Positions 16,248 to 26,289 are shown, numbered from the stretch's first letter. The stretch: 64,000 nucleotides of DNA from an uncultured bacterium (GCA_949291545.1 CASEWB010000006.1:372001-436000); one strand, 5' to 3'. Program-made: numbers and translations. The notes: a model not told the origin generated them from the sequence alone.

Positions 16248-16973
16248 TTATTTAGCAACGGGTTTTTTATTTTTGGTTTTGATTTGCAAATTGGCGGTTT
16301 GGCGGGCTTCTTCAAACACGGTTTGGCTGCTGCGGGCGGCTTGCGCCTGGGCGCGGGCAGCCTGCAGCTGGCTGTTGGTGGCGGCTACATAAGCGTCCAC
16401 CGCCTGGACCAGTTGGGTGCCAGGGTCTTTTTGAAGGGCTTTAAGCTGCTGTTTTAAATCGCTGATTTGCCGGCGCAGGGTTTCTTCCTGCTGGGTGCGG
16501 GCCTGCCCGGACAGCGCGTCGTTTTGCTTAGTTTGTTTGAGCAATTGGCGGGCTTCGTTAAGTTCGTACTCACGCAATTGAACCGTAACGGCCCAAATAT
16601 GCTCAAAAATCGGGAATAACTCTTTGCGAAAATGCACCGCGGCAATGGATTCGTCCCCCCCGCTAAGCTGCGCATACAACAAAGCGTCCGAATAAACCGA
16701 TGTGGCGCCTTTCAGCCGGATAGAAGCATCAAAATTACGGGCCACGGCAATCAGTTCGTAGCGGTTAGCCGCCGTTTGGGGCGAATTATAGGACGAAACA
16801 AAACTTTCCAAAATGTCTTGGTAGTCCTTGTTTTGCTGGGCCCGCTCCAAAACGCCCGGATTGTATTGGGAAAAAATATCCAATACCGTTTCGCGCGTAT
16901 AGAGGCTGGGTTCCCCTGCATAAAGGGCAGAAGACATAGCCAAAGTAGCTAAAATAAAAAGGCTGCGTTTCAT
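16248..16973 (-). CDS. Exported coiled-coil protein, unknown function
   Basis: A 241-residue protein with a clear signal peptide (MKRSLFILATLAMSSALYAG, cleavage about residue 19-20). The middle is helical. From about residue 130 to 220 it is Gln/Ala/Arg-rich with heptad-like spacing, a likely coiled coil, and the tail is basic. AGGA precedes the chosen ATG; an upstream in-frame start would add an unlikely 19 residues before the signal peptide. No known domain. It is the gene before secA but is probably separately transcribed. Confidence 0.75.
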   Translation of the reverse strand: MKRSLFILATLAMSSALYAGEPSLYTRETVLDIFSQYNPGVLERAQQNKDYQDILESFVSSYNSPQTAANRYELIAVARNFDASIRLKGATSVYSDALLYAQLSGGDESIAAVHFRKELFPIFEHIWAVTVQLREYELNEARQLLKQTKQNDALSGQARTQQEETLRRQISDLKQQLKALQKDPGTQLVQAVDAYVAATNSQLQAARAQAQAARSSQTVFEEARQTANLQIKTKNKKPVAK

Positions 16974-17101
16974 ATGAGTTCCTAAGTATACGGTTACTTT
17001 TATTTTGCTATTTCTATGGGAGATAGTCAAGCCTTTTGGGCCGTGGGTGGAACAGCTGGCGCGCCCAATCCGGTTTTTTGTACGCGTTTAGGCAAAATAA
17101 A

Positions 17102-18614: not shown

Positions 18615-19430
18615 ATGCCCAAGGTGGATTTGCACACCCATTCGGAATTTTCAGACGGCACCAGCACGCCGGAAGAAGTGGTTTTGGCCGCTTTTAAAAC
18701 GGGAATTACCGTTTATGCGCTGACGGACCACGACACGACGGACGGCGTGCGCCGTGCCGAAGCCGTGTGCAAAGAACACCGCATTTTGTTTACCCCGGGG
18801 GTAGAAATCAGCACCCGGGACCACGACCACCTGCATTTTACCGGGTACAACCTGGATTTAAACAACACCGAATTTCAAGCGTTTTTGGAGCAAAACCGCA
18901 CCAACCGGCGCGAGCGAATACGCAAAATCATACGCCAGCTGCAGCAGGCCGGTGTAGACATTACGGAAGAAGACGTCTTCTCGCGCGCGCCCAACACCGT
19001 TTCCCGCGCGCACGTGGCGGACGCTTTGAAAGCCAAAAAAATCGTTGCCACCCGCCAAGAAGGCTTCCGCAAATACCTGGTGCCCGGCCAGCCGGGTTAT
19101 GTGCCTTCGGCCGGCGTAACCGCCATAGAAGCCATCCAACACATCAAACGGGCTGGTGGCATTGCCGTCATTGCCCACCCGGGCATCGTGGCCGAACATT
19201 GGGATTTCCCGGCGTGGACCGAAGCCGGGCTGGACGGTGTAGAAGTTTTTTATCCGGCCCACACTTTTACGATGCGCCAAGACCTGCTGGCCATCACCCG
19301 CAAATACGGCCTGATTGCTACCGCCGGGTCCGATTATCACGGCCCCCACGGCGGGCGCAACAGCACCCCCGGCATGCAAATCCCGCAATCCCACTACGAT
19401 AAACTGCTGCGAAAACTATTTAACCGCTAA
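18615..19430 (+). CDS. PHP-domain phosphoesterase (TrpH/YciV-like, RNase AM family)
   Basis: A 271-residue PHP-fold metal hydrolase. The metal motif DLHTHSEFSDG gives H7, H9 and D14, followed by ALTDHDTTDGV, a PGVEIS segment, VIAHPG and a C-terminal GSDYHG. Family members remove phosphate from 3',5'-bisphosphonucleotides or trim RNA 5' ends. It is co-transcribed with the Nfu-type gene and followed by two terminators. Confidence 0.88.
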   Translation: MPKVDLHTHSEFSDGTSTPEEVVLAAFKTGITVYALTDHDTTDGVRRAEAVCKEHRILFTPGVEISTRDHDHLHFTGYNLDLNNTEFQAFLEQNRTNRRERIRKIIRQLQQAGVDITEEDVFSRAPNTVSRAHVADALKAKKIVATRQEGFRKYLVPGQPGYVPSAGVTAIEAIQHIKRAGGIAVIAHPGIVAEHWDFPAWTEAGLDGVEVFYPAHTFTMRQDLLAITRKYGLIATAGSDYHGPHGGRNSTPGMQIPQSHYDKLLRKLFNR

Positions 19431-19514: not shown

Positions 19515-22500
19515 TTATTGCGCCGGAGCGGCGTCATCTAAGTTCATTCCTTCCGCCGCAGGGCCGGAAGTCCCGTCGTTTTTCTTATTGCCGCGTTTAA
19601 AAAGCTTTTTGACGCCTTTCCACAAGCGGCCGGCTTCGTATTTAATTCCTTTTACCAAGGAGGAATTTACCATCATACCCGGGGTTAACACCAAGCTCAG
19701 TCCCAGCGCTACACCCGCGTAAATCAATGCCGGCGCATTGCCTACTTCCGCCAGATAACCGGCCGGAATGGCACCCAAACCGCCGATAGCCATCGTCAGC
19801 GCCAAGATGGAGGACAATTCGCGGTTCTGTTTCGGGTAGCGGTTCATCACATAGTCATACATCTGGGTGAAGAAGTTCCCCACCCCCAAGCTGGCGATTG
19901 CCGCACCGGTAATCGTCTGCGCTACGCTGCTGCCCGCCGTGGCCATAATGCCCGTACCCAAGGCAGAGAGCGAGGAACAGAGGATATACATCGTATCCGC
20001 GCTAATGCGGCGGCTGATTAAGTTGCCGCCCAAGCGGCCTAAAATCAACGGGATATACAGCGAGCAGGCAATTAAGAAGTTAGCCAACTCGCCCTGGCTG
20101 ATTAAGCCTTTCATAGTGCTGGCAAACGCGCTGGAAATTACGAACTCGTGCACTGTGGCCAGCGTCATAGCGGTAGCTAAGGAAGCAACCCCCGGTGCCT
20201 TGAGCATTTTCATCATATTGCCCAGGGTGTTTTCCTGCACGGCGATAGAAGCTTTGATCTGGGAAACAATTTCCTGCGCGCGCTGCGGGGCCAGGTTGTG
20301 TTCTTTTACCAGTCTGTCTTGCAAGTTCGCCAGGAAGGCCTCTTTTTCCTTTGCATACAAATCCGCTTTTTTCTGCCCGGGGTTGATTTTCATGTCCGCA
20401 AACACCAGGGCGTCTAAAGAGTCTTTGAACATACGGGCGGCATCGTCAATTTGCGTAGCCGTCAGCGCAGTATTGGCCTGAGCCAACGCCTTGGAGCCGG
20501 TTTCCAGCGCCCGCTGCAAGTTCTTTTGGCTTTGTTCCAGGTTTTTGACGGAGTAAGCGTCGCGCAGTTTTGCGCGCCATACTCTCCACGCTACGAGGCT
20601 GCTGTACGCGGCATAAATCGGGAAGCTGATAGAGTAGTCCAACCCGTAGTTGTGGCCCGTCAGCTGCGTAAGGCCGAAGTTAATCAGATACGGGGAGGCC
20701 AAGAACGCCAGCGTACCGGCATTTTTGTACACGAAGCTTAAGTTGTACAAAACGATGTCTTTCAAGCTGACGTTGAAATTTTTGGTAAAGAATTCTTTTA
20801 AGCGTACGCCCATTTGCGCGAAACCTTGCTTTTCCACTGCGGTAAACTCGGTTTCGGATTTCGTAAGGGCTTCTTTTGCTTGGTCCAAAATCACTTCCCC
20901 GCGGTTGGCGCGGATTAACATATTGGACACTAATTGTTTTAAAATGCTCGAACCGCTCATTAAGAACAGCGCCGTAATGAACAGCCCTTTGGATACCGGC
21001 CCCAGCGTTAAGCCTTCCACAAACCCGTAGAAGCCGCCCGCGCTGGCCAAAATGCCCGCCGCGGAAGACATCGCCAAGGAAAGAAGCATCAGTTTCTTTT
21101 CCCCGTATTTCTTTAAGATAGGCGTCAGCAGCGAAGCCATACCCGGCAAGATGTAGTTAATCGTAAACATCATGCTGTTGGCTGTGCTTACGTCCATATT
21201 CAGGGCGTTGTTCACCACCGGGCCCATCGTTTTGCCCAAGCTTACGTTGGTGAGCGACGCGTCGCGCATAATCAAATCGGCGCGGTTTTGGGTCGGGTGA
21301 ACGGACACGTTAAACGGAATGGGGCTAAATTGCAGGATTTTGACGAAATTGGAAATTTGGTTTTTCGGTAAGCGCACATACAGACCCGTCAGCGCTTTAG
21401 GAGCAGAAGCACCCGGTTTTAACAAGCCCAAAGAGCCGTTTTCCATCAACACCATTTTAGCGTCTTTGGTGTAATTTTTAAGCGGCAGGGTAACTTCCAG
21501 CGGGAGCACTTTGCCGGTGGCAAAATCCGTTACCGGGAGCTGAATGGTTTGATACGCCACGTTGGGCTGGCTTTCGAGCTTTAAGTAGAATTTTTCGATT
21601 CCAGCCGATTCCACCAAATCTGCCAAAGCCCCTACTTGGTCGGTCTGCAGCCGCATATAGAAGTGCGCCATGCGGAGGGGGTCTTTTTCCTGGTTGCGTA
21701 ATTCCGCCACATACCCGTGTTTATAATTGGAGTGAGCCGCAAAAGCAATGCGGTTATACCCTTTTACACGGAAGCGGTTGCTGATTTCCAAATTGACCGG
21801 CAAAATCCGTTCTACGCCCTGTTCGTCTACCAACGTGAGTTTAAAGCCTTTTTCAGAAACCGGAATAGAGCTGGTTTCGGTCGTGCCTAATACTTCGTCG
21901 GCAGAAGCAGGAGCCTCCGGCGAGGCCAAGTCGCTAAACACTTCGTGGATTTCAGAGTCGTCGTGCAGGCCGGGTTCTTCTTCCACCGGCGCTTTGGTTT
22001 CGGCCGGGGCGGCGGTTTTGCTGCCCCATTTGCCGCGCAGCCATTTGGCCATACGTTTAAACATTTTGCCTACGGCAAACACCGGGACACCACTGTAAAG
22101 AACCCCGTCGTTATCCGAGTGAGAGCTTTTGCTTAAAAAGCTTACCGAGCTTTCCGGGGCCGGCGCTTGCACCGGCTGGGTGGGAACCGTGGGCTGCACC
22201 GAGGCAGACAAGTCGCCAGCGGTTAAATCCGCCTGCGCAAAATTGACTTGCGGCAAAGAAACCTGCAGCGGGGCCGTCAGCCGGGCCGCTTTGGCCAGGG
22301 ACGGCGCCGGTTTAGCAACCGGCTGTGGGGCGGATTTGCCCAACGCCAGCCATTTTTCGGTTGCTTTGCGGGAAGGATCCGCGTTTAAGCGGTTGGCTGC
22401 ACAGCCTACTTGCAGGAACAACGCCAAATCTTTAGAAGCCGCTGCCGCCGGCCCTTCGGCCGCCGCAATCTGCACCGGCCAGTTATGTTGCTGGGCCAGC

Positions 22501-23393
22501 GCGGCTACATCTTTCCAAAAAGAACCTTCGGCTTTGGTTAAGGCGGCTAATTCGGTTAATTCGTTATAAGCGCCTTGACGCAAAAGGCCGCGGGCCGCAA
22601 TTACGGCCGCAGTCTCTTTAAATACGCTGGAAGAAGCTTTTTTGTAGAACGCTACCAACGCCGCTGCATCGGCACGGGAACCCAACAACCCTAAAGCCGC
22701 CGCAGAGGACAAGGCGTGATGGCTTTGTAAAACGGTTTGATAGGAGGGGTGTTTCGGGTTTTGAAGCGCCTGCAGCATACCGCTGATGTTTTCTTGCGGC
22801 AGTTTGGCAAATGCATCGGAGGAAGCCATTAAATCTTTGCGGTAAAAATCCAACGCTTGGGCAATTTGGTCTTTGCTGGCGCCGCCGCCCAAAGCAACCG
22901 TTACAAATTCATTGCGCAGCAGGCTGTCGTGCACGCCCGGATTTTGATAATTTAAAATGCGGGCCGCCATACCTTCCAGCTTGCCTTCCTTTACCGCTTG
23001 GCTGATATCCCGCCCAGTAACAGCCATCTGTTTGCGGATAGCCCGGTCCACCGACGTAGAGACAGAGGAGATTTGCTCAGCAGATAAACCAGAAGATACA
23101 GAGGAGGAAGACGATACACGCGCCGAAACTACAGACGGAACCTTACCGGTTGCCGGCACCGAAACCCGTGGCTGTGCAACCACATTGCGCACAGACGCCG
23201 CACCTGCGGCGGCATTGCGGGTTGCCAGGCCCTCCACCATCTGTTTTCCCACAGTGGAAGAAGCGGCGTTTGCACCCCCGCTTACGACGCCCTTTACCAC
23301 TTGGCGGCCGACTGGCATCGTTTGCGCCAGCGACGGAGAAACGCTACTAAACAAGATACTGATACTCAACACGGCGGACAATAGCTTTTTCAT
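19515..23393 (-). CDS. Large exported chimera: signal peptide, helical region, beta-rich domain and MFS-like membrane domain
   Basis: A 1292-residue protein of unusual build. Residues 1-24 form a signal peptide (cleavage after SLAQ). Residues about 60-130 are Ser/Ala/Val-rich. Residues about 130-360 look like short helical repeats. Residues about 440-500 hold a basic GKMFKRMAKWLRGKWG segment and an acidic linker. Residues about 505-720 are soluble, with beta-strand-like stretches. From about 735 onward there are roughly ten to twelve hydrophobic segments resembling two MFS bundles, interrupted by a long charged helical insert (about 960-1075). The basic tail ends in a short acidic stretch. 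It may be an Elusimicrobiota-restricted transporter-like protein, but substrate and topology are unknown. GAGGAGA precedes the ATG, and the leader is unusual. Confidence 0.75.
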   Translation of the reverse strand: MKKLLSAVLSISILFSSVSPSLAQTMPVGRQVVKGVVSGGANAASSTVGKQMVEGLATRNAAAGAASVRNVVAQPRVSVPATGKVPSVVSARVSSSSSVSSGLSAEQISSVSTSVDRAIRKQMAVTGRDISQAVKEGKLEGMAARILNYQNPGVHDSLLRNEFVTVALGGGASKDQIAQALDFYRKDLMASSDAFAKLPQENISGMLQALQNPKHPSYQTVLQSHHALSSAAALGLLGSRADAAALVAFYKKASSSVFKETAAVIAARGLLRQGAYNELTELAALTKAEGSFWKDVAALAQQHNWPVQIAAAEGPAAAASKDLALFLQVGCAANRLNADPSRKATEKWLALGKSAPQPVAKPAPSLAKAARLTAPLQVSLPQVNFAQADLTAGDLSASVQPTVPTQPVQAPAPESSVSFLSKSSHSDNDGVLYSGVPVFAVGKMFKRMAKWLRGKWGSKTAAPAETKAPVEEEPGLHDDSEIHEVFSDLASPEAPASADEVLGTTETSSIPVSEKGFKLTLVDEQGVERILPVNLEISNRFRVKGYNRIAFAAHSNYKHGYVAELRNQEKDPLRMAHFYMRLQTDQVGALADLVESAGIEKFYLKLESQPNVAYQTIQLPVTDFATGKVLPLEVTLPLKNYTKDAKMVLMENGSLGLLKPGASAPKALTGLYVRLPKNQISNFVKILQFSPIPFNVSVHPTQNRADLIMRDASLTNVSLGKTMGPVVNNALNMDVSTANSMMFTINYILPGMASLLTPILKKYGEKKLMLLSLAMSSAAGILASAGGFYGFVEGLTLGPVSKGLFITALFLMSGSSILKQLVSNMLIRANRGEVILDQAKEALTKSETEFTAVEKQGFAQMGVRLKEFFTKNFNVSLKDIVLYNLSFVYKNAGTLAFLASPYLINFGLTQLTGHNYGLDYSISFPIYAAYSSLVAWRVWRAKLRDAYSVKNLEQSQKNLQRALETGSKALAQANTALTATQIDDAARMFKDSLDALVFADMKINPGQKKADLYAKEKEAFLANLQDRLVKEHNLAPQRAQEIVSQIKASIAVQENTLGNMMKMLKAPGVASLATAMTLATVHEFVISSAFASTMKGLISQGELANFLIACSLYIPLILGRLGGNLISRRISADTMYILCSSLSALGTGIMATAGSSVAQTITGAAIASLGVGNFFTQMYDYVMNRYPKQNRELSSILALTMAIGGLGAIPAGYLAEVGNAPALIYAGVALGLSLVLTPGMMVNSSLVKGIKYEAGRLWKGVKKLFKRGNKKNDGTSGPAAEGMNLDDAAPAQ

Positions 23394-23808: not shown

Positions 23809-24294
23809 TTAACGGGGATATTTTTTAGTTAGTGCTTCGGCCACGCACGGGGGAACCAAATCGCTGATATCGGCCCCGTATCCAACCGCCTCCCGCACGG
23901 CCGACGAACTCAAAAAGGTGTATTCTGCCCGGCACGGCAGGAAGACCGTTTCCGTCCGCGGGTAAAACTTCTTATTATAATGGGCGTTTAGCATTTCGTG
24001 CGCCACATCGGCGGGGCCGCGCACGCCGCGCACCAATACGCGCAGACCATGCGTTTTTAAATAATCCGCCAAAAGGCCTCCCGCGCGTTCCACCCGGATA
24101 CCCGGTTCGTCCTTAAAGGCCTGCTGCAGCAAAAGGAAACGCTCGTTTTCGTCCAACAACGGCCGTTTGGTACCGTTGGCAATCAGCAAAACAATGACGG
24201 AGCCAAATACATCGCGCGCGCGGCGTGCGATGTCCATATGTCCATAAGTTACGGGGTCAAAACTGCCCGCATACACAACGGGAGCGGCGGTCAT
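23809..24294 (-). CDS. coaD: Phosphopantetheine adenylyltransferase
   Basis: Cytoplasmic CoA-pathway enzyme (161 aa) joining ATP and 4'-phosphopantetheine to give dephospho-CoA. The nucleotidyl-transferase motif GSFDPVTYGH is at residues 10-19, with VRGVRGPADVAHE in the middle and LSSSAVREAVGYG near the C-terminus, all at normal positions. AGGAGA precedes the ATG. It stands divergent from dgt. With the type II pantothenate kinase at 58.5 kb it supplies two steps of CoA synthesis. Confidence 0.95.
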   Translation of the reverse strand: MTAAPVVYAGSFDPVTYGHMDIARRARDVFGSVIVLLIANGTKRPLLDENERFLLLQQAFKDEPGIRVERAGGLLADYLKTHGLRVLVRGVRGPADVAHEMLNAHYNKKFYPRTETVFLPCRAEYTFLSSSAVREAVGYGADISDLVPPCVAEALTKKYPR

Positions 24295-25608: not shown

Positions 25609-26289
25609 TTACAGATAAGAAGCGTTGCGGGCAAAGAACGCGGCTACGCGGTCCATCCCCGGGGCGGAAATATTATCCCGCGCCGCTTGGGCAATGGTGC
25701 GCCCGCTGGCATCTTTGCTCATTTTAATCACTTCGTCGGCTTCCGTAGCCAGCGTCACTTTCGCCAACACGCCGCCTTTATCCAACTTGGATTTGACGGA
25801 CATCATTTTTTCGTACAAATCCGTGTACGGAAAAGCAATCCGGAACGTATCGGCGCGGCCATAATTGATTTGCGCGTGGACGGGCGTTTCGCCCAAATTA
25901 TTGCGCTGGTTCATCATTTGGTGAATTTTAATTTTGTAATCCTGCGGATAGAACTTGCGCAGCATACGGGCCAACGCCTGGAACGTTTGGGCATTGCGCG
26001 CCACATGGAAAACGTTGTTGCCATTTTTGCCCTGTCTAAGCAAGAACGAACCCGATACGCTTTGGCTGCCGTATTTCAAGATGGCATTTACATCACCGTT
26101 TTGCGCCGCCGTAAAAATAGGCGTATCGCCAAATTCATTTTCTTTATTCAAATCCGCCGCGGCCACCACACGGGTTAAATAATCGTGCACCCGCTGCATG
26201 CGGATTTCCTGCCGCTGCTCCAGCGAAGCTTGCGCTTGAGCGGCAGATACGATAAAACAAGCTGCTAAAATAAAAAATATCTTTTTCAT
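25609..26289 (-). CDS. Exported ankyrin-repeat-like protein
   Basis: A 226-residue protein with a signal peptide (cleavage after SAAQAQA, about residue 21). Ankyrin-type signatures follow: NEFGDTPIFTAAQNGDVNAILKYG (about 53-76), GNNVFHVARNAQTFQALARML, NNLGETPVHAQINYGRADTF, and a weak last GRTIAQAARDN. These would make three to four repeats for protein binding in the periplasm or outside the cell. The start follows AGGGGGA. It is monocistronic, with an unusual upstream region holding copy 2 of a palindromic element. Confidence 0.8.
   Translation of the reverse strand: MKKIFFILAACFIVSAAQAQASLEQRQEIRMQRVHDYLTRVVAAADLNKENEFGDTPIFTAAQNGDVNAILKYGSQSVSGSFLLRQGKNGNNVFHVARNAQTFQALARMLRKFYPQDYKIKIHQMMNQRNNLGETPVHAQINYGRADTFRIAFPYTDLYEKMMSVKSKLDKGGVLAKVTLATEADEVIKMSKDASGRTIAQAARDNISAPGMDRVAAFFARNASYL

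What the first reader, a model, noticed from the sequence alone, without database searches (positions are those of the whole stretch)
19515..23393. 1292-residue exported protein fused to an MFS-like membrane half
Seen: a signal peptide, a helical repeat-like region, a soluble domain with beta-strand-like stretches, then ten or more hydrophobic segments interrupted by a long charged helical insert. Known: MFS transporters normally lack a cleavable signal peptide and a large extracytoplasmic head. Inference: this could be a lineage-specific transporter-receptor or an envelope machine with a built-in sensor. I do not recognise any family with this order.
Basis: partly seen in the sequence, partly recalled or inferred. 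Interest (0 to 1): 0.65.

Follow-up and report, generated by a model that had tools for sequence, protein, structure and literature searches.

The report
Signal-peptide head fused to 11-helix transporter
Gut Elusimicrobiota carry, at a fixed place beside the coaD gene, a large envelope protein in which an exported head of unknown fold is joined to a membrane transporter that appears to have lost its first membrane helix, and both head and transporter have been swapped between lineages; it is a new, lineage-restricted design on an ordinary transporter fold.

Summary
The gene is real, 1292 aa, on the minus strand of an Elusimicrobiaceae genome (genus of MAG UBA1436). AlphaFold and Foldseek give an MFS bundle, but with 11 rather than 12 membrane helices. 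The segment where TM1 should lie is polar, broken and carries an invariant Lys. Loop charges place the C-terminus inside and the exported head outside, which 12 helices would not allow. The head (alpha-solenoid) and a tandem-duplicated beta domain have no match in Pfam, PDB or BFVD.

Comparative data point to a modular envelope transporter. In nearly every genome examined, the same coaD-PHP slot holds an orthologue or another MFS fusion (one contig ended too early to tell). Neighbours stay mostly 65-98% identical while this protein falls to 25-73%. Some lineages carry another head, a second MFS, or only the second MFS. In one genome two paralogues share a head whose DNA collapsed at exact 77-bp assembly overlaps on both sides, implying recombination of heads.

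By profile search the type-I module occurs in 67 of 341 Elusimicrobiota genomes, all in one family. I read it as a secondary transporter with a covalent, exchangeable periplasmic docking head; substrate unknown. New variant of a known kind.

The parts
19515..23393 (-). whole gene, 1292 aa
   Evidence: orthologues
23322..23393 (-). signal peptide, residues 1-24, ending SPSLA-Q (SPase I-like site)
   Evidence: sequence; conserved in orthologues; same style in paralogues
22344..23081 (-). head: alpha-helical solenoid, residues 105-350
   Evidence: AF2 pLDDT mostly >90; no Pfam match below E 0.005 in 50 members; no Foldseek match with E<=0.001; shared with three paralogues in the same genome
22080..22343 (-). 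disordered Pro/Ala-rich linker, residues 351-438
   Evidence: pLDDT <50 over most of it; fastest evolving part with residues 25-110
22029..22106 (-). GVLYSGVP motif followed by a cationic amphipathic helix, residues 430-455
   Evidence: motif shared by paralogues with and without a transporter; not membrane-spanning by the hydrophobicity estimate
21261..21851 (-). beta domain, predicted periplasmic, two tandem copies, residues 515-711; invariant R674, P676, K677 (RLPK)
   Evidence: internal duplication
21201..21281 (-). degenerate TM1 position, residues 705-731: two short helices around invariant K721 (GKT)
   Evidence: model; hydrophobicity; invariant column
20574..21191 (-). TM2-TM6 of the MFS bundle, residues 735-940, with motif-A-like KKYGEKK after TM2 and invariant K890 in TM5
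20763..20900 (-). charged cytoplasmic insert between TM4 and TM5, residues 832-877
   Evidence: loop K+R 12.9 on alignment average
20190..20573 (-). charged helical cytoplasmic insert between TM6 and TM7, residues 941-1068
   Evidence: loop K+R 20.3; helices in model
19689..20189 (-). TM7-TM12, residues 1069-1235, with invariant E1083 in the middle of TM7
19518..19688 (-). basic C-terminal tail, residues 1236-1292, predicted cytoplasmic
   Evidence: K+R 8.0
23809..24294 (-). coaD, conserved flank of the slot (named from its sequence; not scanned against Pfam)
   Evidence: synteny
18615..19430 (+). PHP-domain gene, the other flank of the slot
   Evidence: Pfam; synteny

Best explanation
It is an inner-membrane MFS-fold secondary transporter of gut Elusimicrobiota with a covalently attached periplasmic assembly: cleavable signal peptide, variable alpha-solenoid head, flexible linker with the GVLYSGVP motif and cationic helix, then a duplicated beta domain sitting at the periplasmic mouth. 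Shown by computation: an MFS fold, 11 hydrophobic helices, no hydrophobic TM1, a positive-inside pattern that puts the C-terminus and the two charged inserts in the cytoplasm and the head outside, and modular exchange of head and MFS at a fixed slot. Inferred: that losing TM1 is what reconciles an exported head with an otherwise normally oriented MFS bundle; that invariant E1083 (TM7), K890 (TM5) and K721 serve ion coupling or substrate binding, so the protein transports; and that the head docks onto a variable partner in the envelope (outer membrane, another protein or a substrate carrier), the head diverging with that partner and being copied between paralogues. Substrate and direction are unknown; import and export are equally possible.
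For: MFS fold: 146 PDB hits with E<=0.001, and the 50 listed are MFS transporters; TMt 0.77 to FLVCR2, 0.74 to MdfA. Pfam MFS_1 weak, best on the C-half. Eleven hydrophobic peaks and alternating loop charge, K+R 3.4/12.9/20.3/1.7/3.2/8.0 against 0.2/0.1/0.7/0.0/0.3. TM1 position polar: estimated insertion cost 6.8 against at most 3.7 for the 11 helices, and short broken helices in the model. Register of the first helix as TM2 agrees with paralogue A, though weakly. Invariant charged residues within helices. Head outside: conserved SPase-I-like signal peptide. Purifying selection strongest in TM parts, weakest in linkers and head, in the close relatives. Slot conservation; swapped modules; shared head DNA between paralogues in G016 with exact 77-bp overlaps at both ends, and the upstream one also in G045.
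Against: No transport substrate, partner or expression evidence. Model coordinates could not be inspected, so whether the K721 segment re-enters the empty TM1 position is unknown. Topology rests on hydrophobicity and charge statistics without a dedicated predictor. Paralogue A (L034) keeps a hydrophobic TM1, 12 helices and classical charges behind the same kind of exported head, so the TM1-loss explanation does not cover the whole family. The 12-helix type II fusions can be reconciled only if an extra head helix spans the membrane.
Confidence: 0.5

Rival explanations
1. A non-transporting MFS-derived scaffold: the bundle has lost TM1 and serves only as a membrane anchor for envelope head domains (structural, adhesive or partner-presenting role).
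For: TM1 lost; heads are the exchanged part and one paralogue (L035) has the head without any transporter; two different MFS modules can stand at the same slot.
Against: Invariant E1083 and K890 within helices across 36 sequences down to 22% identity; TM segments are the best conserved large part among close relatives; an anchor would not need 11 helices.
Confidence: 0.3
2. An ordinary 12-TM MFS with normal topology: the segment around K721 is a real TM1 and either the head returns to the cytoplasm through the GVLY segment or the signal peptide is not used.
For: Residues 705-731 have the length of one helix and are conserved; a positively charged helix follows the GVLY motif, as in a cytoplasmic flank; paralogue A has a good TM1.
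Against: TM1 and GVLY segments score 6.8 and 4.3, within the range of soluble windows of the same protein (lowest 3.8) and above the 11 helices (at most 3.7), though the margin for GVLY is small; the model has no spanning TM1 and the helix after GVLY is only 16 residues and cationic; signal peptide with cleavage site is conserved.
Confidence: 0.15
3. Transporter-receptor with a built-in sensor.
For: A large extracytoplasmic region next to an MFS bundle.
Against: No signalling or known ligand-binding domain by sequence or fold; no dedicated regulator linked to the slot.
Confidence: 0.05

Closest known systems
Major facilitator superfamily (PF07690; nearest folds FLVCR1/2, MdfA, SV2A, OAT/URAT)
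   Same: bundle fold, motif-A-like loop 2-3, basic cytoplasmic loops, central cytoplasmic loop
   Different: 11 instead of 12 helices; exported N-terminal head with signal peptide; sequence below the Pfam cut-off (21.2 against 33.4 bits)
MFS proteins with large extracytoplasmic parts (SV2A, OAT/URAT, POT peptide transporters; from general knowledge)
   Same: large extracytoplasmic region on an MFS
   Different: there the region is a loop between helices; here it is an N-terminal exported head of about 700 residues with no matching fold
Paralogue A in the same genome (L034; SP + head + 12-TM MFS, MFS_1 57.7 bits)
   Same: related head, GVLY motif and MFS fold
   Different: no beta domain; has TM1; clear Pfam member
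Huge proteins of Elusimicrobiota counted in PMC11573180
   Same: the phylum is reported there as unusually rich in giant, poorly characterised proteins
   Different: that survey deals with proteins over 5000 aa and its text does not mention the major facilitator superfamily

Membership tests
Major facilitator superfamily | MFS bundle fold | tested here: met
   Foldseek PDB, E down to 1.1e-6, probability 1.00, TMt up to 0.77
Major facilitator superfamily | 12 transmembrane helices as two six-helix halves | tested here: not met
   11 helices; N-half has five; prediction only
Major facilitator superfamily | match to PF07690 above the curated cut-off | tested here: not met
   21.2 bits against 33.4; the orthologues in G011 and G073 pass
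Major facilitator superfamily | motif A between TM2 and TM3 | tested here: inconclusive
   KKYGEKK at the right place; aligned with KQKFGRK of paralogue A, weak hhalign E 0.0094
Major facilitator superfamily | N-terminus in the cytoplasm | tested here: not met
   signal peptide and loop charges put the head outside; prediction only
Major facilitator superfamily | secondary active transport | not testable with these tools
   only conserved charged residues within helices seen
Tripartite efflux MFS pump (EmrB type) | co-encoded membrane fusion protein and outer-membrane factor | tested here: inconclusive
   none among the neighbours scanned with Pfam, with conserved synteny; rest of genome not searched for them

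The most novel reading that the evidence does not exclude
Elusimicrobiaceae have a polymorphic transporter system: fixed genomic slots hold exported-head/MFS fusions, heads are homogenised between paralogues by recombination within a genome but swapped between lineages, and whole MFS modules are replaced through a double-MFS intermediate, with helix number adjusted (11, or 12 plus a head helix) so that the exported head and the cytoplasmic C-terminus stay compatible.
Probability: 0.3. Interest if true: 0.78.

Novelty: new variant of a known kind. Interest (0 to 1): 0.62.

Why it matters
MFS transporters are normally 12-helix proteins with a cytoplasmic N-terminus. A natural family that seems to have dropped TM1 and so can start from an exported, signal-peptide-borne head would show how topology can be re-engineered in evolution, and gives a compact natural test of whether TM1 is needed for transport. 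The slot behaviour (conserved site, exchanged heads and transporters, head DNA shared by paralogues) looks like a fast-evolving surface or partner-recognition system in a little-studied gut lineage whose phylum is known to be rich in giant proteins of unknown function.

Tried and rejected
Known domain in the head or beta domain: none convincing by Pfam on 50 members, PDB sequence profile, or Foldseek PDB and BFVD (best E 0.16 and 0.23). My first guess of HEAT repeats was not supported. Defence system: no PADLOC hit. NCBIfam: only noise-level hits, apart from one member with CynX/NimT MFS at E 0.0003. Tandem DNA repeats as the cause of contig breaks in the head: none in the two intact long-head loci; shared 77-bp ends explain two genomes instead. 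Searching the downstream head end of G045 in seven genomes did not find a second copy in G045, so the two-sided proof exists for G016 only. Positive selection: gene-wide dN/dS stays well below 1, so no claim is made. Assembly or frame-fusion artefact: rejected by syntenic full-length orthologues. Literature: no description of this architecture found; the E. minutum genome paper and the groundwater Elusimicrobia paper are not held, so prior mention there cannot be excluded.

Full report
What is there. The window is part of a 1.55 Mb, 11-contig genome in the genus of the MAG UBA1436; named relatives are 'uncultured Elusimicrobiales' MAGs. The ORF at 19515-23393 is on the minus strand, starts with ATG and encodes 1292 aa. 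Full-length relatives at 64-74% identity exist in nine other genomes of the 60 sampled, and dN/dS of about 0.14-0.18 shows a gene under purifying selection.

Anatomy. Residues 1-24 are a signal peptide ending SPSLA-Q. Residues about 105-350 form an alpha-solenoid head (pLDDT mostly above 90). A disordered linker leads to a GVLYSGVP motif and a cationic amphipathic helix (about 430-455). Residues 515-711 form a beta-rich domain built of two copies of one unit (hhalign E 7.9e-9). The membrane part follows. Neither head nor beta domain has a convincing match in Pfam, the PDB by sequence, the PDB by fold (best E 0.16) or viral models (best E 0.23).

Membrane part. An alignment of 36 relatives gave a usable AF2 model of residues 480-1292 (pLDDT 77.5, pTM 0.69). 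Foldseek finds MFS transporters (FLVCR2 TMt 0.77, MdfA 0.74). There are 11 hydrophobic segments, and the loops alternate between basic and non-basic so that the C-terminus and both charged inserts are cytoplasmic and the N-terminal side of the first helix is outside. This agrees with an exported head and would not work with 12 helices. The missing helix is TM1: the loop after the first helix resembles MFS motif A, and weak profile alignments to the 12-helix paralogue put the first helix in register with its TM2. At the TM1 position lie two short helices around an invariant GKT (K721), with a polar score like soluble sequence. Invariant E1083 in mid-TM7 and K890 in TM5 suggest that the bundle is still active; this is inference.

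Paralogues. Three paralogues in the same genome share the head at 30-35% identity: A (L034), head plus a 12-helix MFS above the Pfam cut-off; B (L036), head, MFS-like bundle and long C-terminus; C (L035), head plus a soluble region without a transporter. The GVLY motif occurs in A, C and the window protein, so it goes with the head and not with the transporter. Paralogue A is a real problem for the topology argument: it has a good TM1 and yet an exported head.

Distribution. With the 480-1292 profile, 67 of 341 Elusimicrobiota genomes match, all in one family and in 3 of 100 genera, including a 3968-aa frame in G078, whose 1,643,562-bp single contig fits the Elusimicrobium minutum type genome (identification from memory of its length). 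Phyla other than Elusimicrobiota were not searched by profile; one genome-contig scan with the single protein returned ten loci, eight of them titled Elusimicrobia or Elusimicrobiales and two 'uncultured bacterium'.

The slot. In the genus the gene lies between coaD and a PHP gene, followed by an SH3-domain gene and secA. Neighbours are better conserved (in G030, secA 89% and PHP 75%, against 33-36% for this protein). Seven genomes of the genus without a profile match, all carrying the PHP flank, were examined at this site: six have another long MFS fusion there, and in the seventh (G005) the contig shows a 12-TM ORF on the PHP strand and then ends. These type II proteins are 34-57% identical to each other and 35-41% identical to the second MFS of the double-MFS proteins (L041/L018), which carry type I and type II in tandem. 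So head + type I, head + type I + type II, and head + type II all occur at one slot. Type II has 12 helices; the one type II protein complete at its N-terminus (L223) has a strong extra hydrophobic segment in its head, plus one weaker candidate, and the long-headed type I protein L038 has one strong and two weaker ones, so the helix count can be made compatible with an exported head and cytoplasmic C-terminus. This parity argument is suggestive only.

Heads recombine. Many contigs of relatives end inside this gene's head, even in assemblies of 7-10 contigs (loci listed). In G016 the coaD-linked gene and a second gene run off their contigs with an identical 77-bp end shortly after the signal peptide, and the two continuations on contigs C1 and C8 begin with another identical 77 bp, one leading into the MFS module here and the other into a different MFS-like protein next to a pyruvate kinase-like gene. 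Upstream and downstream of the shared part the sequences diverge. This is how an assembler leaves a two-copy repeat, so the two paralogues appear to share a head at DNA level; the shared head itself is not in the binned assembly. G045 shows the upstream half of the same pattern. In the window's own genome the heads of paralogues are well diverged, so this is not universal.

Mechanism and verdict. The best reading is a secondary transporter with a covalent, exchangeable periplasmic head; transport, substrate, coupling and the docking partner are inferred. The sensor idea has no specific support. Classified as a new variant of a known kind: MFS fold, new architecture, apparently new helix count, and unusual evolutionary behaviour.

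Noticed in passing
L187, L188 (G016 C9, C3), L204/L208 (G016 C8), L189 (G016 C1); L191, L192 (G045): Exact 77-bp shared contig ends just after the signal peptide, and in G016 also after the head, suggest that paralogous genes share head DNA; heads appear to recombine within a genome.
   Followed up: partly
L041 / L018 residues about 870-1392: Double-MFS fusion: the 11-helix module is followed by a second, 12-helix MFS of a different type in one polypeptide; the same second type stands alone after a head in other genomes.
   Followed up: yes
L034 2001-4853 (G000:C1): Paralogue with signal peptide, a related head and a classical 12-helix MFS: by charge rules its MFS N-terminus should be cytoplasmic although the head is exported. 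Topological conflict unexplained.
   Followed up: partly
L087 1757-13660; L088 3-12626: Giant relatives of 3968 aa (G078, probably Elusimicrobium minutum) and 4512 aa (G098, frame length); the 3968-aa one has two groups of membrane helices.
   Followed up: partly
window 16248-17030: Predicted exported helical protein next to secA, no Pfam match, also fast evolving (32-69% identity while secA stays at 83-98%) at a fixed place.
   Followed up: no
L208, L209, L089, L090: A second conserved slot beside a pyruvate kinase-like gene holds related MFS fusions in two genera.
   Followed up: no
window 25609-26289: Small exported protein with weak ankyrin-repeat matches, 27-84% identical between relatives at a fixed place.
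   Followed up: no
L228 2-7483: Slot protein in G059 in which the type II MFS is followed by about 1500 further residues with additional hydrophobic segments.
   Followed up: no
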